This document shows, piece after piece, positions 2,486 through 47,619 of a stretch of DNA of 64,000 nt. Both the position numbers and the translations under genes were made by a program. The stretch lies in contig NZ_JAAHGO010000002.1 in assembly GCF_010672455.1 (NCBI RefSeq), forward strand, positions 124,001 to 188,000. Direction: 5' to 3'. Below the pieces are notes generated by a model. The model saw only the letters and a list, made by a program, of their open reading frames with translations. It was not told where the DNA came from and searched no databases. Source of the stretch: Okeania sp. SIO2C9. GTDB taxonomy: Bacteria > Cyanobacteriota > Cyanobacteriia > Cyanobacteriales > Microcoleaceae. How positions within the stretch are numbered: position 1 is the stretch's first letter; every line of letters begins with the position of its first letter.

Positions 2486-3296
2486 TAAGCATAAACTGTG
2501 TTTAAAAATGGGGGTTGTACATTATGGAATGATATTGCCAAAAGTTGGTTTAGACTTTGACTAAAAAAATTTAATATTAGTCATTCTAATAATTCTTAAA
2601 TCCCAAATTATTTTAATCAAAAATATCAAATCATTCTTCACTGTGCAATGCCTAAAAATGGGTTTGCCTTGAGTCTTTTTATTTGGCATTGTTGAGGGGC
2701 GGGATCAATATAAGTGGTAAGTCGGGGCAGGCATCCTGCCTGTCCCTGCCAGGGAGTGAAAATATCAGGAACGGGAAAATATAAACAACGGGCAAGATGC
2801 CAATTCCACTTCCACAAAACTATTAAAATCCCAAGCGCATTTATCAAAATAATATGGGTATAAAACCCCGCCTTTTAAGGCGAAATATTTTTGGAGCGAG
2901 GCTTAAATCCTCATTACAAAAATAACTTCTGTACGGGCGTTAACGGAGCTTTGCGCCAGCAAACGGCCGTTTGCTTCGCATAACTATCGTTAACACCCCT
3001 ACTGACTTCTGACTTCGTTAAGTAATGCCTTTTATTTAATAACCTAGTTTAACATAGAAGAACAATTAAAGCTTTTGTATAGAGCGATTTCTTAGCTCAA
3101 AATTTTATAGATCATCTCCTCAATCAAAAGGCGATATAAACAAAATAATCAGAATATATTCTCATATTTTATAAGGTAAATTAATAATAGTTAAAGCTTT
3201 GATCCATAGCAATTTATCCACTCAAAAAAAATCTAGAGCATATCCTCGATTAAAAAGCGATATAAACAAAATAAAATAGACAAAAACTTATTATAA

Positions 3297-3520
3297 GTTA
3301 AGCATTCAGCTATCAGCATTCAGCACTTCCCTGCGGGATGCTACCCAAACAGTAATTATTCATTACTAATTACTTCTAAGGTTTTCTTCTGGGACTTTGG
3401 CAGTAACTTTTTATTCTTTTTCAACTTCAAATTCTGCTTTTACGCAGACCCAAAATTAATAGCTGATAACGCAGTTTCGACCATAGGAGGCTAGCTAATA
3501 ACTGACGGCTGAATGCTTAC
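3297..3520. mobile_element. E-family MITE, copy 1 (224 bp, old)
   Basis: The left end reads GTTAAGCATTCAGCTATCAG and the right end GACGGCTGAATGCTTAC, inverted relative to each other. An internal GCGGGATGCTACCCAAACAG matches an internal motif of other E copies. No clear 8-bp target duplication remains, suggesting an older insertion. Confidence 0.6.
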
Positions 3521-8846: not shown

Positions 8847-9047
8847 GTAAGCATTTAGCTGTCAGCTATCAGCTATAAACTTACTATTACACCAAAGGAG
8901 GAATTAGTTTCCAAAGAGACTTAAAACTTATGTTTGCGTAGCATTCCGCAGGAAATAAAAAGGTCATTAGTTAACTTGAGTAAGTTATTAGGTTCAAAAG
9001 CTGTTTGCGTAGCATTCCGTAGGAAAAGCTAATAGCTGAATGCTTAC
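8847..9047. mobile_element. E-family MITE, copy 2 (201 bp, perfect 8-bp duplication)
   Basis: The left end is GTAAGCATTTAGCTGTCAGC and the right end GCTAATAGCTGAATGCTTAC, inverted. ATTTTGGC occurs immediately outside both ends (8839-8846 and 9048-9055), a perfect 8-bp target duplication. Internal GTTTGCGTAGCATTCC words occur twice. There is no coding capacity. Confidence 0.85.
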
Positions 9048-9390: not shown

Positions 9391-9559
9391 GTAAGCATTA
9401 AGCTATTAGCTGTCAGCTATAAACTTTTTAATGAATCAAGCAAGTATTCCTTTAATTCATACTACATTCTCAATCAGATATTCGTACTCTGAAGCTTTGA
9501 TAAAATTGCTTTTTTCTCCTTTAAAGCTAATAGCTGATAGCTAAATGCTGAATGCTTAC
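9391..9559. mobile_element. E-family MITE, copy 3 (169 bp, 8-bp duplication)
   Basis: The left end is GTAAGCATTAAGCTATTAGC and the right end GCTAAATGCTGAATGCTTAC. The flanks are AATTGTAT (9383-9390) and AACTGTAT (9560-9567), 7 of 8 matching. There is no coding capacity. Confidence 0.75.
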
Positions 9560-18837: not shown

Positions 18838-19525
18838 ACTCATAGTCAGGAGTTAGGAATTTTTGGGTCTTAACACTATTTATCTATAACGTTATAGTTT
18901 TTCAACGCTATATATCATAGTCAGGAGTTACGCATTTTTGGGTCTTAAACACTATGTATCTATAACGTTATAGTTTTTCAACGCTATATATCATAGTCAG
19001 GAGTTACGCATTTTTGGGTCTTAAACACTATGTATCTATAACGTTATAGTTTTTCAACGCTATATATCATAGTCAGAAGTTAGGCATTTTTGGGTCTTAA
19101 ACACTATTTATCTATAACGTTATAGTTTTGGAAGGCTATATATTATAGTCAGGAGTTAGGCATTTTTGGGTCTCAAACACTATTTATCTATAACGTTATA
19201 GTTTTGGAAGGCTATATATTATAGTCAGGAGTTAGGCATTTTTGGGTCTTAAACACTATTATCTATAACGTTATAGTTTTTCAACGCTATATATAATATT
19301 CAGGAGTTAGGCATTTTTGGGTCTCAAACACTATGTATCTATAACGTTATAGTTTTGGAAGGCTATATATTATAGTCAGGAGTTAGGCATTTTTGGGTCT
19401 TAAACACTATTATCTATAACGTTATAGTTTTTCAACGCTATATATAATATTCAGGAGTTAGGCATTTTTGGGTCTCAAACACTATGTATCTATAACGTTA
19501 TAGTTTTTCAACGCTATAAATAGTG
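18838..19525. repeat. Nine tandem copies of a 75-76-bp unit
   Basis: The palindrome CTATAACGTTATAG occurs at 18884, 18960, 19036, 19112, 19188, 19263, 19339, 19414 and 19490, a period of 76 or 75 bp. Each unit also has CAGGAGTTAGGCATTTTTGG and CTTAAACACTAT. Two subtypes differ after the palindrome (TTTTCAACGCTATATAT versus TTTGGAAGGCTATATAT) and are interspersed, a sign of unit exchange. There is no variable spacer, so it is not a CRISPR array. The array abuts the broken end of phoD. Confidence 0.92.
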
Positions 19526-22435: not shown

Positions 22436-23042
22436 TTTAAGAAGGAAGAAGGAAGAAGCAAGAAGGAAGAAGGGAGAATTTAATTTTCTGTATTTACCAA
22501 AAAATGAGGTCTAAAACCTCCCATTTCAAGGGGATGAAAAAAAAATAAACTTCAATATTTCAATCCCAATACTTCAAGCAGAGGTATTGATAACTGATAA
22601 CTGAAATGACCCCTTGTTCTTTTAAATATCTTTTTTATTGTTTCTACTCAGAAATTTTTCTGAGTTTGGGTTAAAACGTTTTCTGGATTTAGATGAAAAT
22701 TGTCTAAAAATTTATATATAATCTAGCTTAGATAATAACATAGAACGTAAGCATTCAGCTATTAGCCATCAGCTATCAGCAATAAGATCCTATGCTTAAG
22801 AAAGGGGTTTACATGAATATAGACTTTGGAACTGACTTTTGTTGTAAGATTTTTCGTTTCTCAATTAAGAAAGCTTTTATCACTAACTAAAAGCAATAGC
22901 TGATAGCTGATAACTGACGGCTGTTTGCGCAGCATTCCGCAGGAAATGCTTACCATAGAAAATCACAAAATCCACTCTAGTAGTAAATTTCTCTATTAAC
23001 AACCTAAGCACCGTAAAAATCTAATTACTCTCAAAATAACTT
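22436..23042. other. Gap with polypurine run, partial dispersed repeat and E copy 4
   Basis: 22440-22480 is a GAAGGAAGAAGG run. 22494-22620 resembles the central part of the TTACCGAATAATT repeat (AGGTCTAAAACCTCCC, then AACTGATAACTG). 22747-22953 is an E element. No ORF of interest. Confidence 0.65.
22747..22953. mobile_element. E-family MITE, copy 4 (207 bp, 8-bp duplication)
   Basis: The left end is GTAAGCATTCAGCTATTAGC and the right end GCAGGAAATGCTTAC, preceded by GCTGATAGCTGATAACTGAC. The flanks are CATAGAAC (22739-22746) and CATAGAAA (22954-22961), 7 of 8 matching. It carries the GTTTGCGCAGCATTCCGCAG word near its right end. Confidence 0.75.
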
Positions 23043-26718: not shown

Positions 26719-27307
26719 AATTAAATAGGATAACCTCTTGCGCATTTAAACCGCATATTTGTTGTGTGCCTAGTTAATAATATAATTCTTATCAATTTTG
26801 ACTTTTGACTTTTGACTTTTGACTTTCTAAGACGCATTTAAAATGCATCTTAGCTGATCCTGAATTTTTTTTTGCAAAGGTAGCTAAACAATTAATAATT
26901 AATAATTAATAATTAATAATTACCTCATAGACAAGTTAATAAATAAATTTCATAATTCTGTCCCACCTCACATAAAATTAGTATAAAATCCAATACCTAA
27001 CACCTAATTCTGTGCAGCCTCAAATAATTTTGGTATTAGACATTTAAAGACATTTATTATTTGCTTTTTGTCTAGAGGCCAGCTATTAATTTTTCCAAAT
27101 CACTCTAGCTATTTTTCCTTCTTACTTGTTTTTTGTAAAAAAGTAATTGTTATCATAAGACTCATTCTTTGAATGGCAAAATTAGATTTTATATTTACTT
27201 AATTGACTGAAAGGCACTTTTATTTCTCCTGACTCCTGACTCCTAAATAAAATAATTAAAATTAAAATCATACACGCGCTTCAGCAACACCCTTATTCCT
27301 TACTTTT
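26719..27307. other. Gap without recognisable gene
   Basis: TGACTTTTGACTTTTGAC words lie at 26805-26825 and an AATTAATAATTAATAATT run at 26890-26920. 27140-27290 is a segment repeated at 29055-29500, where an E element interrupts it. Nothing else is recognised. Confidence 0.6.
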
Positions 27308-28918: not shown

Positions 28919-29127
28919 AGTTAATTTTGCAGAAGTAAAGTGCAGTCCCTAATAAATAATTTGGCTTTTAGTAACTATACTATGATAATTTGATTTAAAA
29001 AAAATCGGCGTTGTTGATTTGAGGTATGAAATCAGTAATTTAGGTAATAAATTAAGAGTAATTCTTTGAATGGCAAGATTAGATATTGTCTTTACTTAGA
29101 TTGACCGAAAAGCACTTTTCTTTCTCC

Positions 29128-29453
29128 GTAAGCATTCAGCTATTAGCATTTCCTACGGAATGCTCCGCAAACAGCTATCAGATGCATGAAAGAAAGAATC
29201 AAACAATGACCAAGGTTAGCTGAAAGGACTATTTCATTCATATTTAACTTCTTGAATACTAATTCCTTCTTCTAAGATAATGACTTACAGCAATTTTCAT
29301 TTCGGTAGACCACAATAGGGGCGAATGGCCATTCGCCCCTACAGGATTTTGGTTATGACGTGAGGTCATCGATCTCAAAAGTGCTGTAATAACTCATAGC
29401 TGATAGCTGATAGCTGACCACTGTTTGCGCAGCATTCCGGAGGAAATGCTTAC
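29128..29453. mobile_element. E-family MITE, copy 5 (326 bp, perfect 8-bp duplication, empty site known)
   Basis: The left end is GTAAGCATTCAGCTATTAGC and the right end GGAGGAAATGCTTAC. CTTTCTCC flanks both sides (29120-29127 and 29454-29461). The homologous locus at 27212-27245 reads CACTTTTATTTCTCCTGACT without the element. The copy is longer than the others partly because it carries the 28-bp GGGGCGAATGGCC palindrome (29315-29342). Confidence 0.88.
29315..29342. repeat. GGGGCGAATGGCC palindrome nested in E copy 5
   Basis: Matches the 28-bp palindrome at 10403 with its first base changed to A. It lies between the left part of E copy 5 and the GTGAGGTCATCGATCTC segment, and has no counterpart in the other E copies. 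Confidence 0.8.
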
Positions 29454-29527
29454 CTTTCTCCTGACTCCTGACTCCTAAGTAATTAAAATTAATATCATAC
29501 ACCAGCTTCACCAACGCCAAAAAATCA

Positions 29528-32500
29528 TCAATTTCCCGCAAATTTTTGATAATCTTCAAGTAACCAATGAGGCAATTTAGTTATATCTTCAATTCGTAAT
29601 TGTTCAGAAGGACAATATAACATTGCTGCTAATAAATAATTTATAGCTTTTGGTGCTTCTATTCCTTTGGCAAGTTGAGCAGCTAACTGTCGTAAAAATT
29701 CTTGTTCGCTTTCTATTAAAGATTCATTTTGAATTTTGCTATTGAGTAATGCTTGATAACCTTTACCCATTTCACTCAAGTAAAAAGTTTCTAGTTTTTG
29801 CGGTTCTAAATTTATCCAAAAATCAGCCGTTTGTTTTCTGATTTGACGCAATTCTTGAACCACAGATTCATCAGATGGGTCAATATAGTAAAGATTCACA
29901 CTACCCAATAATTGATTGATAAATTTTTGCTGTGAAATGTCTAAATTATTTGTTTGATTTGCTGTTAAAACTACATTTTTTTCTGGTCTAACTTCAGAAG
30001 TTGTGACTGAAGAATCTTCTAATAAATGAGGCGATTTAGATTTAAAAGTTTTTTCCAACTTCTGAGCAACTTCTCGACTTTCAAATATCTGTTTATAATC
30101 TTCTATCAACCACTGAGGTAAACGATTTTTAGCATCTCGGACTAACATTTTACTTGGAGGAAAATATAACATTGCTCCTAAAAGTGTATTAATAGCTTTT
30201 GGATTAGTTAAACCCATACTTGTCTCAGCTAATTCTTGGAGAAATTTTTGTTCGTCTTCAGTCTGGGGTTCGTTTTGAATTCCACTTTTTAACAAAGCTT
30301 GATATGCTTGTCTAATTTTGCCTTGATAAGTAGTTTCTAATTCTTTGGGAGCTACAGATAACCAAAAATCAGCTATTTGTTTACGAATTTGACGTAATTC
30401 TTCTATTAAAGATTGGTCAGTAGGGTCAATTTCGTAGAGATTCACACAACCAATCAAACGGTTAATAAATTCAGAAGTTAAAGAATTGTCATCTTTTTCT
30501 TTTGGGTTTAATACCCTGTCGTCTACACGGTTTTGAAAATTGGTTAGGGTTTGAGTACTCATCCACCTTTTCTCTCTTCCTTCTTCCTTCTTCTCTCTTC
30601 CTTCTTCCTTCTTCCTTCTTCCTTCTTCAACTGTTGATTCTATAGTTTTTGGCGCGTGAATATTTTGCCATTCTTGGAATAATCCTTGAAATAATTTACC
30701 TATCTGTGTAGAGTAACTAAGACTGTCTAAAAATGAAGGATTTTGCTCAATTTTTTCCAGAATTTCTTGGCGTTTTTGTTGACGAAATTCTAAATTATTG
30801 GCAAGCTGAATGGCGAGATTAATATATTCTGCTTCGTTGTTAACTATTAGGTCTGGAATGGAGAGCGATCGCAACAATGAACTACCCATTAAGGAGCGGA
30901 ATGAATTACCGTTTTTTGTAATTATTGGGATGCCTATTTCTAGGGGTTCTATGAGGGAGTTTACTCCAGCAAATGGATAGGAGTCTAAATAGACGTTACA
31001 TAATTTCAAGCATTCTTTGATGTCTGATCGACTTGGTAATGTTTTAATTACTATTAGTCGTTTTTTATCGATGCCATATTTATTAAATGTAGAGCGCAGG
31101 TCATTAACAAAATGGGTACTAGCTTGATAGGTATTACTCCAGTTAGGATTAAAGGGATATAAAACTAGAACAGAATTTGGTACGGCAGCAATAATTTTTG
31201 CCCAATTTTCTCTCAGTTCGGGAATGATTTTATAAAAGTTTGCTCCGGAAACAAAGACTATATTTTTATCGGTTACTCCCCAACTTTCTCGAGTTGGTTT
31301 AACTACTGGTTTTTCTGGTTGAGTTGCATAGTAATTGAAGCAATGGGCTGTATTTTTTAAGGTAATTAATTTTTCCCGATATTGTTGTTGTGCTTGTTGT
31401 TGGGGTTCTGTTAATTTTCCAGATATATAATAGTCAATATGTCTCATTCCTGTTGTTACGCAAGAAGAGGTTGATGTTAGTTGAATTCTTGCTAGTCGGT
31501 GTAAAGCAAGTAAGGTAATAGGATTAGTAATAGCAGTAATGTTGGTACCAATTAAGAGGATATCTAAATCATCGGTGCGAATAGTTTCTACTTGTTTGCT
31601 TAGGTTATCTGGTAATTTTACGAACCGCTCTGCACGACTTTGACAATATTTTTCTAGGGGATATTTACTCAGGTTTTTGCTATATAAGATAATTTCAAAT
31701 TTAGTTTTGTCTAAATGTTCAAAAAATGGCAGGGTGGAAAAAGTTTCTGTTTGAGGAATAAAGTGATTGCTGAGAATTCCTAAACGAATTTTATTTCGGT
31801 TGCTGGGTCTTTCTGGAAAGGAATAATTGAGTTTAAAGCCTCGATTTTCTAAGGCTAGTTCCATTATTTCGGCACGTTTAATATATATGTCTTTCAGATT
31901 TTCATCATTAAAGTAGAGGGGGATAAAGTTTGATTTTTGGGTAAAAAACCAAGCTATATCTTGCCACATTTTTGAGTCGGAGTTGCCGAATATTCTTTGA
32001 TGTAGATAGTTAGTCCAGTTGAAGGTATAACGATAAAAGTTATCTGCTTCTCCTATTTCTTGAAAGTAGCTAGGAGCATCAATCATAAATTTTATATAAT
32101 CATTGATAAACCATTTAGGAATTGGAGCTTGTTCGTACCAGTTTGGTGAAAGTTGATGGGGATAAAAATAGAGAGTTGCAGCTAAGAGATATTGAATAGA
32201 ATTTTGTCGATCTAATCCTTGAGCAATATGATTTTTTATTTCCTTGACCAAGGATTTTTCTGTATCTGTAATTTTTTCATATTTCAGACTACTACCGATT
32301 AACTTTTGATTAGCTTTACCAACATCACCTAAATAAGCACTTTCTAATTTTTCTGTAGGTAAATTGAGCCAATAGTTAGCAATTTTCTGACGGAGTTGAC
32401 GGAGATTATCTAAAACTGACTGATTGGAGAAATCTTTCTGATATTCCTCAACATATTTAGACACTTCAGAAAAGAGCTGAGTAGTATTTATTTCCAGAGT

Positions 32501-35500
32501 AGAATCTGAAGAAATAAACAGAGAAATTATCCCCTCCTTTACTTGATTAGACTCACTACATTTTAAAGCTTCTTGAATTTGAGCGATCGCTACTTCTAGT
32601 TTTCCAATTCTCAACATTTGTCGTGCTATTTGAGTGGCAGAAATAGCATAATGTTCTCTAGCTTGAGTAGATAATTTTTTTACTTTTTCTGGTGGGAGGT
32701 AAGATTGGGAAATTTCGATAGATTTCCGAGTATCAGCAATATTCCCACCAAACTTAATTAATCTCGTACTTTCTGATGCTGAATGTAAACGATAACAAGC
32801 TAGAGGTTGAGGTTGATAACCAACAGAATAATAAGTAGCTATTCGTTTCCACATTTCCCAATCTGCTGCGGAATTTGCTTCTGGACAAAATCCTCCTAAT
32901 TGTTCATAAACGCTACGTTTTACTACTATCGAAGCACATTGAATTTTTTGCATTACGGCAATTTTTTCTAGCCATTCAGGAATAATACCAGGAGTTTCTT
33001 TTTCCAGTGGAGAGACCATCTTTTGATTATTATTTTCATCTATATAATAGTGGCGACAAAATGCTGCTCCTATTGTGGGATTTGCCTCAATTACACTACG
33101 GATACTTTCATAAAATCCTGGTAATACTAAATCATCTTGATGGAGAATATGAATCCATTTACCTGATGCTCGTTTTAGACAATCATTCCAATTATCAACT
33201 AATCCCAAATTTTGAGGTTGTCGATAATAAGAAATTCTCCCCTTACCAATTTTTTTGACAACTTCTTCTACATTTACTGTAGTTGAACAATCATCAACAA
33301 CTTCTATTTCCATTTCACCCCGTTCTGGCGCTTGTTTCAAAACAGAATTCAAAGTTTGTTCCAAAGTTAATGTGGGATTATAAGTAGGAATCATTACAGA
33401 CCAAAAAGGTCGAGTCTCTGTTTCAGAAAGTGGTGAAATTTGTGGATATTTAATTGCGAGATTTTCCACCATGGAAGATTGAGATTTAAGTTGATTTAAT
33501 TCTGTCATTAGTGAGTTTCTATATTTATGCAATATTTCTTCTGACCAAATTACTTCCTGTTGACTATACAACTGGGAATGTAGATAAATAATTATAGCTT
33601 TATGAACTGCCAAATTAACCGAATTTTGATGCAGTTTTTGTTGGCGAGACCCAGAAGAATGTTGTCTATAATAAAGATAAGGTTTTTCCAGTCTATAACC
33701 TAACCAACCTTTTTCATATGCTGAAATCCAAAACTCCCAGTCTTCCCAACCCTGTTTCATTACAGTTTTAAATCCACCCACCTGTAGAAAAATTTCTCTT
33801 CTCAATAAGGATGTAACTGGAGCTTGATTTTCACTTAAAAAACGTTTGACATTAAAATCTCCGAAACTTTCTAACTTCTCCTCAAAACCAAATTTATGAA
33901 TATCTGTATAAACAAAACCAACTTGTGGATTTTGTTTTAATACCCCTAAAGTTTCTGCAATAAAATTAGGATGAATCTTGTCATCCCCATCCACAAAAAG
34001 AATAAATTTACCAGAACTATAATTTACTCCTACATTTCTAGAATCAGACACTCCCGTATTTTCTTTCTCTATTAAACGGAGACTTTTTTCAGAATACTTT
34101 TTAGCTAAATTTCTTGCCACTTGAGATGTGTGGTCAGGACTACCATCATTAACAATTAAACATTCCCAATTTTCATAGGTTTGATTAACAACACTCTCCA
34201 CAGCTTCCGTTAAATATTCTGCCTGGTTATAACAAAGAATAATTACCGAAACTAAATCCGATCTACTCAAAAAATCAATAGGTTCATACTGGGAATTTTT
34301 CACTTTTGACCTTTGACTCCCCCCAAGAATTTGACGGTAGGGTAAAGTCATTAATTCCCCAGAAGAAATTTCAGTAGTAACAGAAACTTTACGCTTAACC
34401 CCACGCTGAAAAATTCCATACTCATTACAAATATCATCAGTTTCTTCCTTCGCTCTTTCACCTCCCTTTTCCAAACCTTCTTCATTCTCAAAATACAACC
34501 CTAAAATTTCTGGCAAACGAACAATTTTTTCATTTTTACCAATCCTGAGCCAAAATTCATAATCACCCGCAACCCTAAATTCAGACCTAAAATATCCATA
34601 CCTTTCATGTAGAGATTTTCTCCACATTGGTTGAGGACCAATAATACAACGTCGCTCTAATTCCTGATAGTCAAACTCCGGCCAATTCCAACATTTATCT
34701 GCTTGAGTTGTTGCCCAAAAATCATTAGGAAAAGTAGTAACTAATTGGTCTCCATATACTAAAGATATCTGAGGATTATTATCCAAATAATTTGCCATAA
34801 ACTCCAAAGCATCTGGTCGGTGTCGGTCATCTGTATTAGCATTAGTAATATAATTCCCCTTAGCAATTTTTATCCCACGATTCCAAGCAGCATAAATACT
34901 CTCCCTTTCCAGTGTTCTTTGATAAATTATCTGGGAATATTTAGTTTGAAACTCTTGAGCGATCGCTCCTTCTTTCTCTTCGGATGCGCTGTCAATAATG
35001 ATAATTTCTAACTTCCCTTTTTTATAGAGAGTTTGATTGACTAAATCTTCTAAACATCCTTGGAGAAATTTTTCAGAATTATATGTAGAAATAATCGCTG
35101 ATACTTGAGGTATTGAAATTAACTGGGATTCTAATTTACTTTGACTAGCTTCTTCTCTAAATACTTCTATTTTTTCTGAGCGTTTGACTGTTGCCCAAAT
35201 CCAAGGTTTAGCAGATTTTAGAGAAACTAAATTAAAACCTGCTTCCAGGAGTAAATCTTTTAATTGTTCTTCAGTATAAGCATTACCAGAAAAATAATAT
35301 TGTTGATCTTTCGCCCCTTCCTCATCAAAATTCCCCAAACTTTCAGCACTATGGTCATGTACTTGAATTCTAAAATATCCCCCTGGTTTTAACACCCTAA
35401 ATATTTCTCGAAAATAACTCTTGACAATGGAAATAGAACGGATGTGTTGAAAAACTATTGTGGAATAAACAAAGTCGTAACTTTCAGAACTTAGTGCTTG

Positions 35501-38500
35501 TAAATCACAGCCATTGTTAACATATACCTCTCCATTTTGTTTCCCATTTGCCAAACAATATTTGGCAAACTGAATCATTTTTTCCGAAATATCTACACCA
35601 TCCACCTGTGCAAATATTTTCCGTAAAGGTTGAATTAAACGACCGACACCACAACCAATTTCTAAGACTTTCCACTCTGGTTTTGCCGGGATATCTCCCA
35701 TAATTTGTGGCATCCAATTTTCTATTGACTTTTCCCAAACTTGCTTTTTTTCTTCTGGGGAAAGAGTCTCTATTCCGCTGTAAGCTAATACCCGCCCAAA
35801 CATAGCTTCATCTATAGAATTAACATTCCAAAATTGGCGTTGTAATTCCAGTTGCTTCTCGTTTATTGGTGCAACCTTGCCTAGATTTTCCCTACTTTCC
35901 ATAGCAGATAGTTTCTCTAATTTAAGAGGAAATTTTTCTACACCTACTTCTACTTTTTGTGCGCGTTTGACTGTTGCCCAAATCCAAGGTTTAGCAGATT
36001 TTAGGGAAACTAAATTAAAACCTGCTTCGAGGAGCAAATCTTTTAGTTGTTCTTCAATATAAGCATTACCAGAAAAATAATATTGTTTATCTTTCGACCC
36101 TTCCTCGTCAAAATTTCCCAAACTTTCAGCACTGTGGTCATGTACTTGAATTCTAAAATATCCTCCGATTTTCAACACCCTAAATATTTCTCGAAAATAA
36201 CTTTTGACAATAGAAATAGAACGGATGTGCTGAAAAACTATCGTTGAAAAAACAAAGTCATAACTTTCGGAACTTAGTGCTTGTAAATCACAACCATTAT
36301 TGACATATAAATTTCCATTTTGCTGACCATCAGCTAAATATTGCTTGGCAAATTGAATCATTTTTTCCGAAATATCTACACCATCCACCTGTGCAAATAT
36401 TTTCCGTAAAGGTTGAATTAAACGACCGACACCACAACCAATTTCTAAGACTTTCCACTCTGGTTTTGCGGGGATATCTCCCAGAATTTTTGGTATCAAA
36501 GTTTGTATTGAATTTTCCCAAGCTTTCTGTTTTTCTTCTGGAGAAAGTGTCTCTATTCCACTGTAAGCTAATACTCGTCCAAACATAGCTTCATCTAGAG
36601 AATTAACATTCCAAAACTGACGCTGCATTTTTAACTGCTCATAATTTATTAGAAGTTGAGTTTTGCCTAAACTTTTCCTATCTTCCATCACAGATAATTC
36701 CTCTAATTTAAGAGGAAATTTTTCTACACCTACTTCTAGTTGTTGTTCGCGTCTTACCGTTGCCCAAATCCAAGGTTTAGCAGATTTTAGGGAAACTAAA
36801 TTAAAACCAGCTTCCAGGAGTAAATCTTTTAGTTGTTCTTCAGTATAAGCATTGCCAGAAAAATAATATTGTTGATCTTTCGACCCTTCCTCATCAAAAT
36901 TTCCCAAACTTTTAGCACTGTGGTCATGTACTTGAATTCTAAAATATCCCCCTGGTTTTAACACCCTAAATATTTCTCGAAAATAACTTTTGACAATGGA
37001 AATAGAACGGATGTGTTGAAAAACTATTGTGGAATAAACAAAGTCGTAACTTTCAGAACTTAGTGCTTGTAAATCACAGCCATTGTTAACATATACCTCT
37101 CCATTTTGTTTCCCATCTGCCAAATATTGTTTGGCAAACTGAATCATATTTTCCGAAATATCTACACCATCTACCCATGCAAATGTTTCTCGTAAATACT
37201 TAATAAGACGACCAACACCACAACCAATTTCTAATACCTTCCACTCTGGTTTAACAGGGATACCTTCCAGAATTTGTGGCATCCAAGTTTGTATTGAATT
37301 TTCCCAAGTTTGCTTCTTTTCTTCTGGAGAAAGTGTCTCTATTCCTTCATAAACTAATACCCGCCCAAACATAGCTTCATCTATGGAATTAACATTCCAA
37401 AATTGGCGCTGCAATTCCAGTTGCCGATTGTTTATTGGTGCAATTTTAGTTGGATTTTGCTCGAGATTTTCAACTGTTGAATTAGCCATTGAAATTAACT
37501 GGGATTCTAATTTACTTTGACTAGCTTCTTCTCGAAGTACTTCTATTTTTTCTGGGCGTTTGACTGTTGCCCAAATCCAAGGTTTAGCAGATTTTAGGGA
37601 AACTAAATTAAAACCAGCTTCCAGGAGTAAATCTTTTAGTTGTTCTTCAGTATAAGCATTGCCAGAAAAATAATATTGTTTATCTTTCGACCCTTCCTCG
37701 TCAAAATTTCCCAAACTTTCAGCACTGTGGTCATGTACTTGAATTCTAAAATATCCTCCGATTTTCAACACCCTAAATATTTCTCGAAAATAACTTTTGA
37801 CAATAGAAATAGAACGGATGTGCTGAAAAACTATTGTGGAATAAACAAAGTCATAACTTTCGGAACTTAGTGCTTGTAAATCACAACCATTATTGACATA
37901 TAAATTTCCATTTTGCTGACCATTAGCTAAATATTGCTTGGCAAATTGAATCATTTTTTCCGAAATATCTACACCATCTACTTGTGCAAATATTTTCCGC
38001 AAAGGTTGAATTAAACGACCTACACCACAGCCAATTTCTAAAACTTTCCACTCTGATTTTATTGGTATATCTTGAAGAATTTTTTCCGTAGAACTTAAGA
38101 TTGAATTTTGCCACGCCAGATTTTTTTCTGAAGGAGACATCCCATTAATTTTTTCATCAGTAAGAACTCGTTCAAACATAGCTTCATCTATAGAATTAAC
38201 ATTCCAAAACTGACGTTGAAAGGAAAGTTGTGCTGTATTTATCTGTTCAGAGGAAGCAATAGAGATATTATTTTTACTTTCTACAAAATTGTCAGCTTTG
38301 CCTTGAGACTTAATACCATCCGTGGAAAGTTGTAATTTTTCTTTCCTCCCTAATATTTTCTGCAATATTTCTGTAGCAGGAGTAAAACTAGGTGCTTTTT
38401 GTACTACTTGACGCAAAACTTTTTCTGCCAAGTCAAAATCATTAACTTTCTCTGCCGAAATTGCCAAATAATATCCTACTCTCCAGTTATTACAACCTAA

Positions 38501-39853
38501 ATTTATAGCTGCTGTAAACTCAGAAATAGCTTGACGATGCTGACCCTGTTTTTGTAAAACTAATCCCGACCATAATCTCAAATAACCATCTTTTGAATAA
38601 TAATCTCGATAATTAAAAATTCCACCTCCATATCTATTACAAAGTACAGGAGAAGAATGAGAAATCTGATTCTCCCCAACTAATAATTCTGAAATATTTT
38701 CAGACTTCATACTCACAGAAAAATTTTCTGCCATTTCCCCTAAAGATTGAATAAATAATTCCGCACCAGATAATTTACTCTTATTCCATTGACGTTTTCT
38801 TTTTGGTTGTTTGAGGAGGTAGTCGTAAATTTCATTAATCTTGTTTGTAGAACTTTCAGGACTAAAATTTTGTCGCGCATATTCTTGAGCATTACGACCT
38901 AATCTCATCCTTTCCTCTGGGTGAAAATAGAGATATTCTATAGCATTTTTATATTCCGTTTCATTATTAACAACTAAACCAGTTTGATTATGAATAACTA
39001 ATCTTTTAATTCCGCCAAAAGGGAAAACCACAGGTGGTACTCCAACCCACATTGCCTCTTGCAAACTCTTCTCTGAAGTAGCATAAGTATCTTCACACAA
39101 TGGATAACCAAAAACATCTAAAACTTCTAATACCGACTTAATATCTTCAACGTAACCCCTAAACTCAAAACGCTCTACTGCACCTAACTTTTCCGCTTCT
39201 TTTCGTAAATAATTATTGATACCACCACAGACAATAAATTTCACATTTGGGATATTAACTTTGGCACTCATTCCCACATAATTAGAGTACATTTTCGCAA
39301 AATCAACTGTACCAATATAGCCAACATTAAATGTATCGTGAAATTGTGGCTGAAAATCCTCAAGTCTATCAAAATCTGCAATCCCATAAACCACAGAAGT
39401 ACTTGAACTTTTCTTCGTCGAAGATAAACTTTCAAATACAGGTAATTCCAGAGTATAAGGACTTGTTACTATAGAAAAATCAGCATATTCCAATAACTCC
39501 TTTGTAATAATATGAGGCGCTCGATCGCCAATTATTTTAAACCAAAATACCAACCGCATTGCCGGAAGTTCAGAGCGTAATAATTCATAGATTTCTGGAT
39601 TATTCCAAAAATGAATATGTACAATATCCGCCGCCTCTATTTCACTCCAAATAATTTCTTTATTAGGTTGATTTATCACATACATCCCTTCATTATTCCC
39701 AAGTGAAACTGCCTCTGTTTCTGCTGGTAATAAACTCAGAACTCGATGTTGTTGCACCACACCCATTCGAGACGAATATTTAGCAGTTGCCATCATTGAG
39801 CGACCAGCACCACCACGGGAAAGTTGTTGAATAATATGCAGAATTTTTAGCAT
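29528..39853 (-). CDS. Giant multidomain glycosyltransferase/methyltransferase with GT41-like module
   Basis: About 3441 aa from ATG 39853 (MLKILHIIQQLSRGGAGRSM); the open frame extends 57 codons upstream, but that part is repeat-derived. Domain order (residues from this start): GT4-like glycosyltransferase 1-400; helical/TPR linker 410-540; four class I methyltransferases at about 545-770, 814-1035, 1076-1295 and 1336-1555, each with VLEIGCGVGRLI; three GT2 domains at about 1581, 1866 and 2146, with NANTDD, FVDGDD and LHQDD metal motifs; a helical repeat near 2471; an OGT/SPINDLY-like GT41 domain at about 2688-3100; and two more helical repeats at about 3128 and 3314. It probably builds and methylates a surface or secreted glycan, or glycosylates proteins. 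Two stretches of simple intergenic repeat lie in frame inside it. Confidence 0.85.
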   Translation of the reverse strand: MLKILHIIQQLSRGGAGRSMMATAKYSSRMGVVQQHRVLSLLPAETEAVSLGNNEGMYVINQPNKEIIWSEIEAADIVHIHFWNNPEIYELLRSELPAMRLVFWFKIIGDRAPHIITKELLEYADFSIVTSPYTLELPVFESLSSTKKSSSTSVVYGIADFDRLEDFQPQFHDTFNVGYIGTVDFAKMYSNYVGMSAKVNIPNVKFIVCGGINNYLRKEAEKLGAVERFEFRGYVEDIKSVLEVLDVFGYPLCEDTYATSEKSLQEAMWVGVPPVVFPFGGIKRLVIHNQTGLVVNNETEYKNAIEYLYFHPEERMRLGRNAQEYARQNFSPESSTNKINEIYDYLLKQPKRKRQWNKSKLSGAELFIQSLGEMAENFSVSMKSENISELLVGENQISHSSPVLCNRYGGGIFNYRDYYSKDGYLRLWSGLVLQKQGQHRQAISEFTAAINLGCNNWRVGYYLAISAEKVNDFDLAEKVLRQVVQKAPSFTPATEILQKILGRKEKLQLSTDGIKSQGKADNFVESKNNISIASSEQINTAQLSFQRQFWNVNSIDEAMFERVLTDEKINGMSPSEKNLAWQNSILSSTEKILQDIPIKSEWKVLEIGCGVGRLIQPLRKIFAQVDGVDISEKMIQFAKQYLANGQQNGNLYVNNGCDLQALSSESYDFVYSTIVFQHIRSISIVKSYFREIFRVLKIGGYFRIQVHDHSAESLGNFDEEGSKDKQYYFSGNAYTEEQLKDLLLEAGFNLVSLKSAKPWIWATVKRPEKIEVLREEASQSKLESQLISMANSTVENLEQNPTKIAPINNRQLELQRQFWNVNSIDEAMFGRVLVYEGIETLSPEEKKQTWENSIQTWMPQILEGIPVKPEWKVLEIGCGVGRLIKYLRETFAWVDGVDISENMIQFAKQYLADGKQNGEVYVNNGCDLQALSSESYDFVYSTIVFQHIRSISIVKSYFREIFRVLKPGGYFRIQVHDHSAKSLGNFDEEGSKDQQYYFSGNAYTEEQLKDLLLEAGFNLVSLKSAKPWIWATVRREQQLEVGVEKFPLKLEELSVMEDRKSLGKTQLLINYEQLKMQRQFWNVNSLDEAMFGRVLAYSGIETLSPEEKQKAWENSIQTLIPKILGDIPAKPEWKVLEIGCGVGRLIQPLRKIFAQVDGVDISEKMIQFAKQYLADGQQNGNLYVNNGCDLQALSSESYDFVFSTIVFQHIRSISIVKSYFREIFRVLKIGGYFRIQVHDHSAESLGNFDEEGSKDKQYYFSGNAYIEEQLKDLLLEAGFNLVSLKSAKPWIWATVKRAQKVEVGVEKFPLKLEKLSAMESRENLGKVAPINEKQLELQRQFWNVNSIDEAMFGRVLAYSGIETLSPEEKKQVWEKSIENWMPQIMGDIPAKPEWKVLEIGCGVGRLIQPLRKIFAQVDGVDISEKMIQFAKYCLANGKQNGEVYVNNGCDLQALSSESYDFVYSTIVFQHIRSISIVKSYFREIFRVLKPGGYFRIQVHDHSAESLGNFDEEGAKDQQYYFSGNAYTEEQLKDLLLEAGFNLVSLKSAKPWIWATVKRSEKIEVFREEASQSKLESQLISIPQVSAIISTYNSEKFLQGCLEDLVNQTLYKKGKLEIIIIDSASEEKEGAIAQEFQTKYSQIIYQRTLERESIYAAWNRGIKIAKGNYITNANTDDRHRPDALEFMANYLDNNPQISLVYGDQLVTTFPNDFWATTQADKCWNWPEFDYQELERRCIIGPQPMWRKSLHERYGYFRSEFRVAGDYEFWLRIGKNEKIVRLPEILGLYFENEEGLEKGGERAKEETDDICNEYGIFQRGVKRKVSVTTEISSGELMTLPYRQILGGSQRSKVKNSQYEPIDFLSRSDLVSVIILCYNQAEYLTEAVESVVNQTYENWECLIVNDGSPDHTSQVARNLAKKYSEKSLRLIEKENTGVSDSRNVGVNYSSGKFILFVDGDDKIHPNFIAETLGVLKQNPQVGFVYTDIHKFGFEEKLESFGDFNVKRFLSENQAPVTSLLRREIFLQVGGFKTVMKQGWEDWEFWISAYEKGWLGYRLEKPYLYYRQHSSGSRQQKLHQNSVNLAVHKAIIIYLHSQLYSQQEVIWSEEILHKYRNSLMTELNQLKSQSSMVENLAIKYPQISPLSETETRPFWSVMIPTYNPTLTLEQTLNSVLKQAPERGEMEIEVVDDCSTTVNVEEVVKKIGKGRISYYRQPQNLGLVDNWNDCLKRASGKWIHILHQDDLVLPGFYESIRSVIEANPTIGAAFCRHYYIDENNNQKMVSPLEKETPGIIPEWLEKIAVMQKIQCASIVVKRSVYEQLGGFCPEANSAADWEMWKRIATYYSVGYQPQPLACYRLHSASESTRLIKFGGNIADTRKSIEISQSYLPPEKVKKLSTQAREHYAISATQIARQMLRIGKLEVAIAQIQEALKCSESNQVKEGIISLFISSDSTLEINTTQLFSEVSKYVEEYQKDFSNQSVLDNLRQLRQKIANYWLNLPTEKLESAYLGDVGKANQKLIGSSLKYEKITDTEKSLVKEIKNHIAQGLDRQNSIQYLLAATLYFYPHQLSPNWYEQAPIPKWFINDYIKFMIDAPSYFQEIGEADNFYRYTFNWTNYLHQRIFGNSDSKMWQDIAWFFTQKSNFIPLYFNDENLKDIYIKRAEIMELALENRGFKLNYSFPERPSNRNKIRLGILSNHFIPQTETFSTLPFFEHLDKTKFEIILYSKNLSKYPLEKYCQSRAERFVKLPDNLSKQVETIRTDDLDILLIGTNITAITNPITLLALHRLARIQLTSTSSCVTTGMRHIDYYISGKLTEPQQQAQQQYREKLITLKNTAHCFNYYATQPEKPVVKPTRESWGVTDKNIVFVSGANFYKIIPELRENWAKIIAAVPNSVLVLYPFNPNWSNTYQASTHFVNDLRSTFNKYGIDKKRLIVIKTLPSRSDIKECLKLCNVYLDSYPFAGVNSLIEPLEIGIPIITKNGNSFRSLMGSSLLRSLSIPDLIVNNEAEYINLAIQLANNLEFRQQKRQEILEKIEQNPSFLDSLSYSTQIGKLFQGLFQEWQNIHAPKTIESTVEEGRRKKEEGREKKEEGREKRWMSTQTLTNFQNRVDDRVLNPKEKDDNSLTSEFINRLIGCVNLYEIDPTDQSLIEELRQIRKQIADFWLSVAPKELETTYQGKIRQAYQALLKSGIQNEPQTEDEQKFLQELAETSMGLTNPKAINTLLGAMLYFPPSKMLVRDAKNRLPQWLIEDYKQIFESREVAQKLEKTFKSKSPHLLEDSSVTTSEVRPEKNVVLTANQTNNLDISQQKFINQLLGSVNLYYIDPSDESVVQELRQIRKQTADFWINLEPQKLETFYLSEMGKGYQALLNSKIQNESLIESEQEFLRQLAAQLAKGIEAPKAINYLLAAMLYCPSEQLRIEDITKLPHWLLEDYQKFAGN
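30553..30640. repeat. In-frame CTTCTTCCTTCTT repeat inside the giant gene
   Basis: The polypyrimidine run (coding-strand GAAGGAAGAAGG) encodes EEGRRKKEEGREKKEEGREK between the GT41 module and the last helical repeats. The same word is otherwise intergenic in this window (first 20 bases, 22440, 49860). The frame is retained throughout. Confidence 0.85.
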
Positions 39854-41212
39854 TTTTTTCCAGCTAAAGCTTAAGTAAATTAATCCTCTAAAACAGGGAA
39901 TAATTATACCATTTATCAAAAACTTTTCTACATTTTTTTGAGTAGGGGAGTAGGGGAGTAAGGACGTTGTATGTAACGTCCCTACAGGGAGAAGTAAACA
40001 GAAGAATAATAATACCAAATTCAATCAAGATTGTTACAGTAACACCTTCTGCTGAATGGAATTGAAAAATATTCACTTTTTATTTTTGATACCTACCACC
40101 TAACACCTCACACCTACCACCTAATACCTCACACCTGAGAATAATTAACACCAAATTTAATCAGGATTGTTACAGCAAAATTGAAAAATATTCACTTTTT
40201 ATCTTTGATACCTACCACCTAACACCTCACACCTACCACCTAATACCTCACACCTAACACCTAATACCTGAGAATAATTAATACCAAATTCAATCAAGAT
40301 TGTTACAGCAAAATATAAATGCTGAACAGAATTGAAAAATATTCACTTTTTATTTCTCATACCTAATACCTCACACCTAATACCTGAGAATAATTAATAC
40401 CAAATTCAATCAAAATTGTCACAGCAAAATATAGATGCTGAACAGAATTGAAAAATATTCACTTTTTATTTCTCATACCTAATACCTCACACCTAATACC
40501 TGAGAATAATTAATACCAAATTCAATCAAGATTGTTACAGCAAAATATAAATGCTGAACAGAATTGAAAAATATTCACTTTTTATTTCTCATACCTAATA
40601 CCTCACACCTAATACCTGAGAATAATTAATACCAAATTCAATCAAGATTGTTACAGCAAAATATAAATGCTGAACAGAATTGAAAAATATTCACTTTTTA
40701 TTTCTCATACCTAATACCTCACACCTAATACCTGAGAATAATTAATACCAAATTCAATCAAGATTGTTACAGCAAAATATAAATGCTGAACAGAATTGAA
40801 AAATATTCACTTTTTATTTCTCATACCTACCACCTAATACCTGAGAATAATTAATACCAAATTCAATCAAAATTGTCACAGCAAAATATAGATGCTGAAC
40901 AGAATTGAAAAATATTCACTTTTTATTTCTCATACCTAACACCTCACACCTAATACCTAATACCTGAGAATAATTAACACCAAATTTCATCAAGATTGTT
41001 ATAGCAAAATTGAAAAATATTCACTTTTTATTTCTCATACCTAACACCTAACACCTAATACCTCACACCTAATACCTAATACCTGAGAATAATTAATACC
41101 AAATTCAATCAAGATTGTTACAGCAAAATATAGATGCTGAATGGAATTGAAAAATATTCACTTTTTATTTCTCATACCTAAAACCTAAAACCTAAAACCT
41201 AAAACCTACCAC
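39854..41212. repeat. About ten tandem copies of a ~115-bp unit plus ACCTAATACCT decamers
   Basis: The unit carries AATTAATACCAAATTCAATC, GATTGTTACAGCAAAATATA, GAATTGAAAAATATTCACTT and a variable run of ACCTAATACC / TCACACCTAA words. The CAAATTCAATCA-type marker recurs about ten times between 40015 and 41100. Copies 2 and 9 lack the ATGCTGAACAG part. No variable spacers, so not CRISPR. 39898-39961 also matches, inverted, 53205-53268. The array fills the whole space between two same-strand genes and so forms the leader of the giant gene. Confidence 0.9.
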
Positions 41213-42061
41213 CTAATACCTTTTCAAAGAATAGTGCTTGAGCTTATGAACTTGATTAATTAAATATCCTTTGTCAAAAAAATAATCACTATAAATATCT
41301 TCCACTTCACGGTCACAATCATGAATAAATATATCAGTATTACCACTTTCCATAGCTAGTTTAGCTGCCATATAAATACTCTTCATTCTCCCTGGTTTCT
41401 CCTCAGAATATCCTGCTGGTGCATCTACCAAAATAAAATCCCATTTTGTAAATAAAACTTTCTCAGGTAATACCATCCATAAACAATCATTTCCTTGACT
41501 ATATTCTTCCAGTAAACTTTTCCATAAATAAACTCTCGTACCATACTCAACCAAATAAGCCTCAATATAATTTTCACAACCAACTTTTACTTGATTCAAC
41601 CAATCTTTATCATCCTCCAAAAATACAGTTTTTCCACCTCTATTTACCCCCAACCAAAGTAAACTATCCTTACCAACTCCAAAGATTAGAAAATTACCAG
41701 GTACTTTCCCCCCAATCACATTAGTAATATAAGCATATTCTTGAAAAGACATTTGACCAGGATTATCATTAACTAACTGAAAAATTTGACTACCATACTC
41801 ATCAAATAAACAGCGGTCTAACCGACTATAAACTGAACCATTATCAAGCAAAATTTCTGTTGCTTTAATATAAGCACGAACAGCAGCATTTATATCCCCA
41901 TTCAACTGCAAAAAACTTCCCAGAATTTCATATACTTCCACAAAATCTGGTTGACCTTTAATAACTTCATAGCACCAGGCGATCGCTTCCTTGAATTTTC
42001 CTTGATTGTAATAAAATTGCGCTTTTTTATTTAAAGCAATAGTATCGCCAAAATTAATCAT
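41213..42061 (-). CDS. TPR-DUF579 (IRX15/GXM-like methyltransferase) fusion
   Basis: 282 aa. ATG 42061 is chosen because AAGGAGG lies 8 nt upstream. Residues about 8-90 contain two TPR units (YNQGKFKEAIAWCYEVIKGQ, then LGSFLQLNGDINAAVRAYIK). Residues about 120-282 resemble DUF579: NFLIFGVGKDSLLWLGVN, GGKTVFLEDDKDWL, FILVDAPAGY, and KPGRMKSIYMAAKLA followed by FIHDCDREVED. In plants this family includes glucuronoxylan 4-O-methyltransferases. Upstream of the giant glycosyltransferase on the same strand, it may methylate the same glycan. The start of the tail meets the tandem repeat array. Confidence 0.8.
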   Translation of the reverse strand: MINFGDTIALNKKAQFYYNQGKFKEAIAWCYEVIKGQPDFVEVYEILGSFLQLNGDINAAVRAYIKATEILLDNGSVYSRLDRCLFDEYGSQIFQLVNDNPGQMSFQEYAYITNVIGGKVPGNFLIFGVGKDSLLWLGVNRGGKTVFLEDDKDWLNQVKVGCENYIEAYLVEYGTRVYLWKSLLEEYSQGNDCLWMVLPEKVLFTKWDFILVDAPAGYSEEKPGRMKSIYMAAKLAMESGNTDIFIHDCDREVEDIYSDYFFDKGYLINQVHKLKHYSLKRY

Positions 42062-47079: not shown

Positions 47080-47619
47080 TATTTAGAGCAACAAAATTCT
47101 TGAATAGTTCATCGCTAGATTTTCTTACCAGTATTTTTGATGTATTTGAATAAAAGTAAGCATTCAGCCGTCAGCTATTAGCTAGCCTCCTGCGGAGGAA
47201 CTGGGTTAACAGCTATTAATTTTGAGGAAGGTAAAAATAATTGAGAAATTGAGACAGAATAAAAGTTACTGTTAAAGTCCCCTTCCTAAACCTCAGAAGT
47301 AATGAATAATTACTAATTGCTGATAGCTGACTGCTAATAGCTGAATGCTTACGAATAAAATAATATCAATTCTCAAAATTGAATGGAGACTTAGTATAGG
47401 TCTATAATTACAATAGTCATATTATTTATCAAAAATAGTACTATTTTTGACTGTCCTGTAACTGTGTATCTAATACCAAGTTTTTAGGGCAATAAATACT
47501 ACTTGTTTCAGACTCATTCCTTCTTTAGCTTCTGACTCCTGAATTCTGAGTTCTAATTTCCAAAGATATATAGTCAAACTTTTTTATTCAATTAAATATC
47601 TCAAATAGGAGAAAATTCA
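47080..47619. other. Gap with E copy 6
   Basis: 47156-47352 is an E element. The remainder is AT-rich, with CTGACTCCTGAATTCTGAG words near 47535. The last 12 bp hold the AGGAG ribosome site of the next gene. Confidence 0.7.
47156..47352. mobile_element. E-family MITE, copy 6 (197 bp, perfect 8-bp duplication)
   Basis: The left end is GTAAGCATTCAGCCGTCAGC and the right end GCTAATAGCTGAATGCTTAC, inverted. GAATAAAA lies immediately outside both ends (47148-47155 and 47353-47360). There is no coding capacity. Confidence 0.88.

What the first reader, a model, noticed from the sequence alone, without database searches (positions are those of the whole stretch)
29120..29461. E-family MITE with 8-bp target duplication and a visible empty site
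The ends GTAAGCATTCAGCTATTAGC and GGAAATGCTTAC are flanked by CTTTCTCC on both sides (29120-29127, 29454-29461). The same host DNA occurs at 27212-27245 without the element (CACTTTTATTTCTCCTGACT). Thus a repeat that could pass for low-complexity noise is a discrete mobile unit. Target duplications at copies 8847-9047 (ATTTTGGC), 47156-47352 (GAATAAAA), 9391-9559 (7 of 8) and 22747-22953 (7 of 8) agree. 8-bp duplications fit several DDE IS families, but no matching transposase is in the window.
Basis: seen in the sequence. Interest (0 to 1): 0.85.

Follow-up and report, generated by a model that had tools for sequence, protein, structure and literature searches.

The report
IS66-type miniature transposon family in Okeania
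The repeat is a small, gene-less jumping element with hundreds of relatives in this marine cyanobacterium; its ends and its 8-base footprint match those of a known transposon family (IS66), and other small repeats have since landed inside it.

Summary
In detail: an element at 29128-29453 between two copies of CTTTCTCC. In 1.22 Mb of the genome, 27 of 41 close end pairs carry an 8-bp duplication (>=7/8, 21 perfect). With looser ends it is 30 of 532 pairs against 0 of 1625 poor-end pairs; in 20 further loci, 14. Of 19 copies tested against related genomes, five have an uninterrupted single target at a syntenic place. Likely mobiliser: IS66. Some Moorena and Okeania IS66 elements share the terminal 12 bases GTAAGCATTCAG, and full elements make 8-bp duplications. 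The exact parent was not found: 84 of 84 IS66 ends examined differ at base 13, and the host genome (Okeania, inferred) shows only one decayed IS66 fragment. This copy also holds a TA-flanked IS630-like insert and two copies of a 21-bp dispersed module; at copy 22747 that module is present in two species and absent in a third. New family of a known kind; modest interest.

The parts
29120..29127 (.). left target-site duplication CTTTCTCC
29128..29453 (+). E element, 326 bp, ends GTAAGCATTCAG... and, reversed, GTAAGCATT...
29151..29171 (+). 21-bp dispersed module in the left arm, between ATT and CAGC
   Evidence: read
29288..29386 (.). nested IS630-like MITE (CAGCA...TGCTG) flanked by TA at 29286-29287 and 29387-29388; absent from the related copy C24:689482
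   Evidence: boundaries read
29424..29444 (-). 21-bp dispersed module in the right end, next to the terminal GTAAGCATT
   Evidence: read
29454..29461 (.). right target-site duplication CTTTCTCC
27156..27291 (+). unoccupied copy of the dispersed repeat into which E29128 inserted (paralogous empty site, 85% identity to the joined flanks)
3298..3520 (.). E copy, duplication 7/8; single uninterrupted target in syntenic G002 and G004
8847..9047 (.). E copy, duplication ATTTTGGC 8/8
9391..9559 (.). E copy, duplication 7/8; present at the orthologous site in G002
22747..22953 (.). E copy, duplication 7/8; orthologous copies in G002 and G004; the 21-bp module of the right end is missing in G004
47156..47352 (.). 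E copy, duplication GAATAAAA 8/8

Best explanation
E is a family of MITEs (median 202 bp, 167-420 bp in the 30 copies examined) that an IS66-family transposase (TnpC, DDE type) moved in trans by recognising the terminal GTAAGCATTCAG and joining it to AT-rich targets cut with an 8-bp stagger. Shown: ends, 8-bp duplications, single-copy empty targets at syntenic places, presence/absence between Okeania species, and the same 12 terminal bases and 8-bp duplication in some full IS66 elements of related cyanobacteria. Inferred: that an IS66 transposase acted on E, and that it is now lost or unassembled in this genome. Copy 29128 jumped into a dispersed repeat; an IS630-like MITE then entered it at a TA, and it carries two copies of a 21-bp module.
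For: 8-bp duplications: 27 of 41 close pairs, 30 of 532 against 0 of 1625 poor-end pairs, 14 of 20 further loci. Empty single targets: C24:301773 (G003), 488327 (G001), 60751 (G003), 53974 (G001; target 6/8 alike) and window 3298 (G002, G004); synteny on both sides for 488327, 60751 and 3298, on one side for 301773 and 53974, which lie near contig ends in the relative. IS66: 32 of 80 loci have paired ends with a duplication >=6/8, 30 of them 8/8; both ends GTAAGCATTCAGGTG in three of five Moorena loci (L203, L263, L270). Okeania IS66 fragments end GTAAGCATTCAGGTGTAGGGG. Transposases: NF033517 IS66, 293.9 bits for L154 and 187 bits for the fragment in L188. Own-genome IS66 relic C69 with one end GTAAGCATTGAGGTGTAG. 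Table rows for ISPpa5a and ISPpa7 (IS66) hold an 8 that I take for the duplication length, header not seen (PMC3281130, passages).
Against: No parent found: in 42 cut IS66 elements (some loci counted twice) 84 of 84 ends have G at base 13 where E has C; 7 of the 84 begin GTAAGCATTCAGGT and 63 GTAAGGATTCAGGT. Another Okeania IS66 (L174, duplication 8/8) shares only GTAAG with E. A blastn of the 30 E copies against those 42 elements gave 115 weak rows, of which the 25 printed are at most 18 bases long (best E of those 0.026), so the E interior shows no clear IS66 sequence. The IS66 end search used a pattern resembling the E end, which favours such ends; the duplications are an independent check. 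No intact IS66 in this assembly, but it is in 317 contigs. Ten of the 19 copies tested for empty sites gave no resolved state and one was ambiguous; the match lists were capped.
Confidence: 0.85

Rival explanations
1. E is a MITE of another, undetected DDE transposase family that also makes 8-bp duplications; the 12 shared bases with IS66 are convergence.
For: No IS66 with base 13 = C and the CAGC heptads was found (84 of 84 ends have G); several IS families make 8-bp duplications (recalled).
Against: Twelve of twelve terminal bases identical to IS66 ends of Moorena and Okeania, plus the same duplication length. No pair of E-like ends with a perfect duplication between 450 bp and 10 kb in 1.22 Mb. 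Other transposase families were not searched.
Confidence: 0.12
2. The repeats are not mobile units but regulatory or recombination-made repeats, with flanking matches by chance.
For: Copies vary in length and in heptad number; several flanks are themselves repeats.
Against: Duplications far above chance and single-copy empty targets at syntenic places in related genomes.
Confidence: 0.02
3. E is fossil: it spread before the Okeania species split and has not moved since.
For: Copies 22747, 9391 and 232502 are shared between species; only an IS66 relic was found here.
Against: Copies 301773, 488327, 60751, 53974 and 3298 are present here and absent with an intact target in at least one species; precise loss is not excluded.
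Confidence: 0.15

Closest known systems
IS66 family, single-gene (tnpC only) cyanobacterial elements, e.g. Moorena L203 (1543 bp)
   Same: Terminal GTAAGCATTCAG and 8-bp duplication
   Different: E has no transposase, C instead of G at base 13, and CAGC-heptad arms without clear IS66 similarity
Nezha and other cyanobacterial MITEs (seen only as a reference in a passage of PMC10969869)
   Same: Short non-autonomous inverted-repeat elements in cyanobacteria
   Different: Ends of Nezha not compared here; no IS66-type MITE of cyanobacteria was apparent in the listings (25 of 44 papers listed)
IS630/Tc1-mariner-type MITEs (nested element only; the TA rule of that family is recalled)
   Same: TA on both sides of 12 of 12 near-full copies, ends CAGC...GCTG (read from the printed flanks)
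   Different: No transposase with these ends was sought
Small dispersed repeats (SDR) of Nostoc, Elhai et al. 2008 (recalled; only a citing passage read, PMC4390886)
   Same: Very short, dispersed, precise insertion point
   Different: Sequence and target not compared with the published SDRs; that paper was not found in the library

Membership tests
MITE | short, gene-less, multicopy | tested here: met
   167-420 bp in 30 copies; no ORF >=100 aa in 29128-29453; 417 end matches in the genome
MITE | terminal inverted repeats and target duplication | tested here: met
MITE | precise empty sites | tested here: met
   5 of 19 copies tested; 10 of 19 unresolved, 3 occupied only, 1 ambiguous
IS66-derived MITE | ends shared with IS66 | tested here: met
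   12 of 12 terminal bases with some Moorena/Okeania IS66; base 13 differs in 84 of 84 ends
IS66-derived MITE | 8-bp duplication as in IS66 | tested here: met
   PMC3281130 table passage
IS66-derived MITE | internal-deletion relation to a parent IS66 | tested here: not met
   no IS66 found with E-type inner sequence; so E is called IS66-type by its ends, not a proven deletion derivative
IS66-derived MITE | moved by IS66 transposase | not testable with these tools
   needs an assay
IS630/Tc1 MITE (nested unit) | TA target duplication | tested here: met
   TA on both sides of 12 of 12 near-full copies, which alone could be part of the repeat; the E copy C24:689482 reads through with a single TA
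SDR (21-bp module) | dispersed, found apart from E, precise presence/absence | tested here: inconclusive
   85 matches in 1.22 Mb, control 0, many outside E; one clean orthologous presence/absence case among 33 modules examined

The most novel reading that the evidence does not exclude
The 21-bp module TCCTRCGGAATGCTNCGCAAA (424 matches in this genome) is itself a mobile unit, one of the smallest, that inserts without a visible target duplication at a fixed point (ATT^CAG) in E ends. It changes transposon ends after they have landed and may disable them.
Probability: 0.35. Interest if true: 0.6.

Novelty: new member of a known kind. Interest (0 to 1): 0.4.

Why it matters
It names the likely source of hundreds of repeats in large Okeania genomes, and gives orthologous insertion sites and one module presence/absence site for testing how MITEs and 21-bp repeats move.

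Tried and rejected
Rejected: low-complexity noise and chance flank matches. Rejected: the 27212 site as an orthologous empty site; the intergenic regions of G002, G003 and G004 at the place of 29128 do not align with it. Tried without result: long element pairs with E-like ends and perfect duplications; more IS66 in the own genome by protein search (only C69). A first run for module presence/absence printed no hits, probably because of an unsupported BLAST gap setting, and was redone; there, besides the clean 22747 case, two G002 modules match G004 only with 14 gaps and two places carry the module in both genomes compared. Orientation of minus-strand loci was wrong and corrected. In one search the script's count of TA-flanked copies reads 0 because its boundary was off by one base; I read the TA from the printed flanks. 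Folding as DNA gave no unusual stability for the module-bearing end (z -0.23; bare module z -2.12). Copy 11246: three relatives lack E (G004 syntenic), but the junction is not a simple single target copy.

Full report
OBSERVATION. The element lies at 29128-29453 with CTTTCTCC on both sides. The 16-base end is far above chance in the window (11 against 0.08) and in the genome (417 matches with up to 2 mismatches against 5 for the reversed pattern). The window lies in G000, contig C112:124001-188000; G000 is 10.88 Mb in 317 contigs. Two same-genus genomes have contigs whose lengths equal those of Okeania sp. SIO2B3 (G002:C22, 22,064 bp) and SIO1I7 (G004:C44, 750,120 bp) records, so the host is inferred to be an Okeania, a filamentous marine cyanobacterium.

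TARGET DUPLICATIONS. In C112, C24 and the first 80 kb of C223 (1.22 Mb), 41 inward-facing end pairs lie under 450 bp apart; 27 have an 8-bp duplication of at least 7/8, 21 of them perfect, against about 0.45% when all flanks are re-paired. With looser ends, 30 of 532 good-end pairs under 600 bp reach 7/8 and 0 of 1625 poor-end pairs do. In the 20 of the first 30 exact-match loci that lie outside C112 and C24, 18 have a partner end and 14 reach 7/8 (10 perfect), while the same test 20 bases further out never exceeds 5/8. The 30 duplicated targets are 77% A+T; the sampled contigs have 36-37% G+C.

EMPTY SITES. The 27212 site is real (116 of 137 aligned positions). However, the flank is a dispersed repeat: 12 matches listed run across the junction in G002, G003 and G004 (one aligned cleanly, L283), and the intergenic region of three relatives at the place of 29128 does not align with it. 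I therefore tested 19 copies with joined flanks against four same-genus genomes (10, 9; lists capped). Five show an uninterrupted single target: 301773 in G003, 488327 in G001, 60751 in G003, 53974 in G001 (target 6/8 alike), and 3298 in G002 and G004, where the window also has a partial tandem copy of the left flank. Longer flanks are collinear on both sides for 488327, 60751 and 3298, and on one side for 301773 and 53974, which lie near contig ends in the relative; the flanks of 301773 and 53974 also have weaker matches elsewhere. Three copies are occupied in the relatives where resolved: 22747 (G002, G004), 9391 (G002) and 232502 (G002, G003); 301773 is occupied in G001 and G002. One (11246) is ambiguous. 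Ten gave no resolved state: 8847, 29128, 47156, C112:194096, C112:229961, C24:90840, 321426, 340749, 427273, 563556.

FAMILY. A search for the IS66 transposase family gives one decayed fragment in the own genome (C69), bounded on one side by GTAAGCATTGAGGTGTAG. With the same search 16 of 59 genomes (own included) match, some with open frames of about 490 codons. In 80 named loci, 32 have paired ends with duplications of 6/8 or better, 30 of them 8/8. The commonest end is GTAAGGATTCAGGT (63 of 84 ends of 42 cut elements, some loci counted twice); 7 of 84 begin GTAAGCATTCAGGT; 84 of 84 have G at base 13. Three of five Moorena loci (L203, L263, L270) have GTAAGCATTCAGGTG at both ends, and Okeania fragments in G002 and G004 have GTAAGCATTCAGGTGTAGGGG. 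E shares bases 1-12 with these and differs at base 13. One Okeania IS66 (L174) has an 8/8 duplication but shares only GTAAG. The transposases are IS66 by NCBIfam and, for L154, Pfam. Table rows for two Paracoccus IS66 elements hold an 8 that I take for the duplication length (PMC3281130, passages). That IS66 ends begin GTAA is also my recollection. The E interior has no clear IS66 match. The exact parent is open.

DISTRIBUTION. With up to 2 mismatches on a 20-base end, 17 of 59 genomes (own included) match, with high counts only in genera g1 (own), g7 and g8. At up to 1 mismatch, 15 of 61 genomes of the family (own included) match. The 21-bp module, searched as a 24-base pattern with up to 1 mismatch, has 424 matches in the own genome and is found in 14 of 59 genomes (own included), control 0. 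Some g7 genomes with many E ends have almost none of it (G010: 44 E ends, 1 module; G025: 53 and 1), so the module looks like a separate repeat.

LAYERS. In copy 29128 the module sits at 29151-29171 and 29424-29444, and a 99-bp nested unit at 29288-29386 is flanked by TA. Twelve of 12 near-full copies of that unit (of 56 match rows, duplicates removed; this copy included) show TA on both sides, and the related E copy C24:689482 reads through at the place with a single TA. In the sample, 22 of 85 module matches directly follow GTAAGCATT. At copy 22747 the module is present here and in G002 but absent in G004, where the flanks close up with one gap in 161 aligned bases. This is the one clean case among 33 modules examined, and its direction (gain or loss) is not known. 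It offers an explanation of how ends reading GTAAGCATTTCC can still have perfect duplications: the module can come after insertion (inferred).

LITERATURE. Searches on MITEs in cyanobacteria (25 of 44 papers listed), IS66 with MITE, Trichodesmium and Okeania repeats listed no IS66-type MITE of cyanobacteria by title or abstract start. PMC10969869, PMC2246112, PMC3116915, PMC4390886, PMC3281130 and PMC9950141 were opened for passages only. Most subscription papers are not held, so a prior description cannot be excluded.

Noticed in passing
29528-40024 (-): 3498-aa open frame with three glycosyltransferase family 2 and four methyltransferase stretches by Pfam; parts match each other in register-shifted alignments to relatives
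   Followed up: no
18842-19521 and 40003-41215: probable tandem repeats (shifts of about 76 bp and about 116 bp) seen as register-shifted alignments to relatives
   Followed up: no
27156-27291 and 29063-29127 with 29462 onward: about 137-bp dispersed repeat with TCCTGACTCC heptads, several copies in at least G002, G003 and G004
   Followed up: partly
L189:1686-2720: 1035-bp IS66 deletion derivative with both ends but no matching 8-bp duplication in G004 (Okeania SIO1I7)
   Followed up: partly
genome C24, left flank of 427273: about 108-bp flank belongs to another repeat with a dozen or more listed copies in each of four Okeania genomes
   Followed up: no
3030-3297: the left flank of the 3298 copy is partly tandemly duplicated here but single in G002 and G004
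   Followed up: partly
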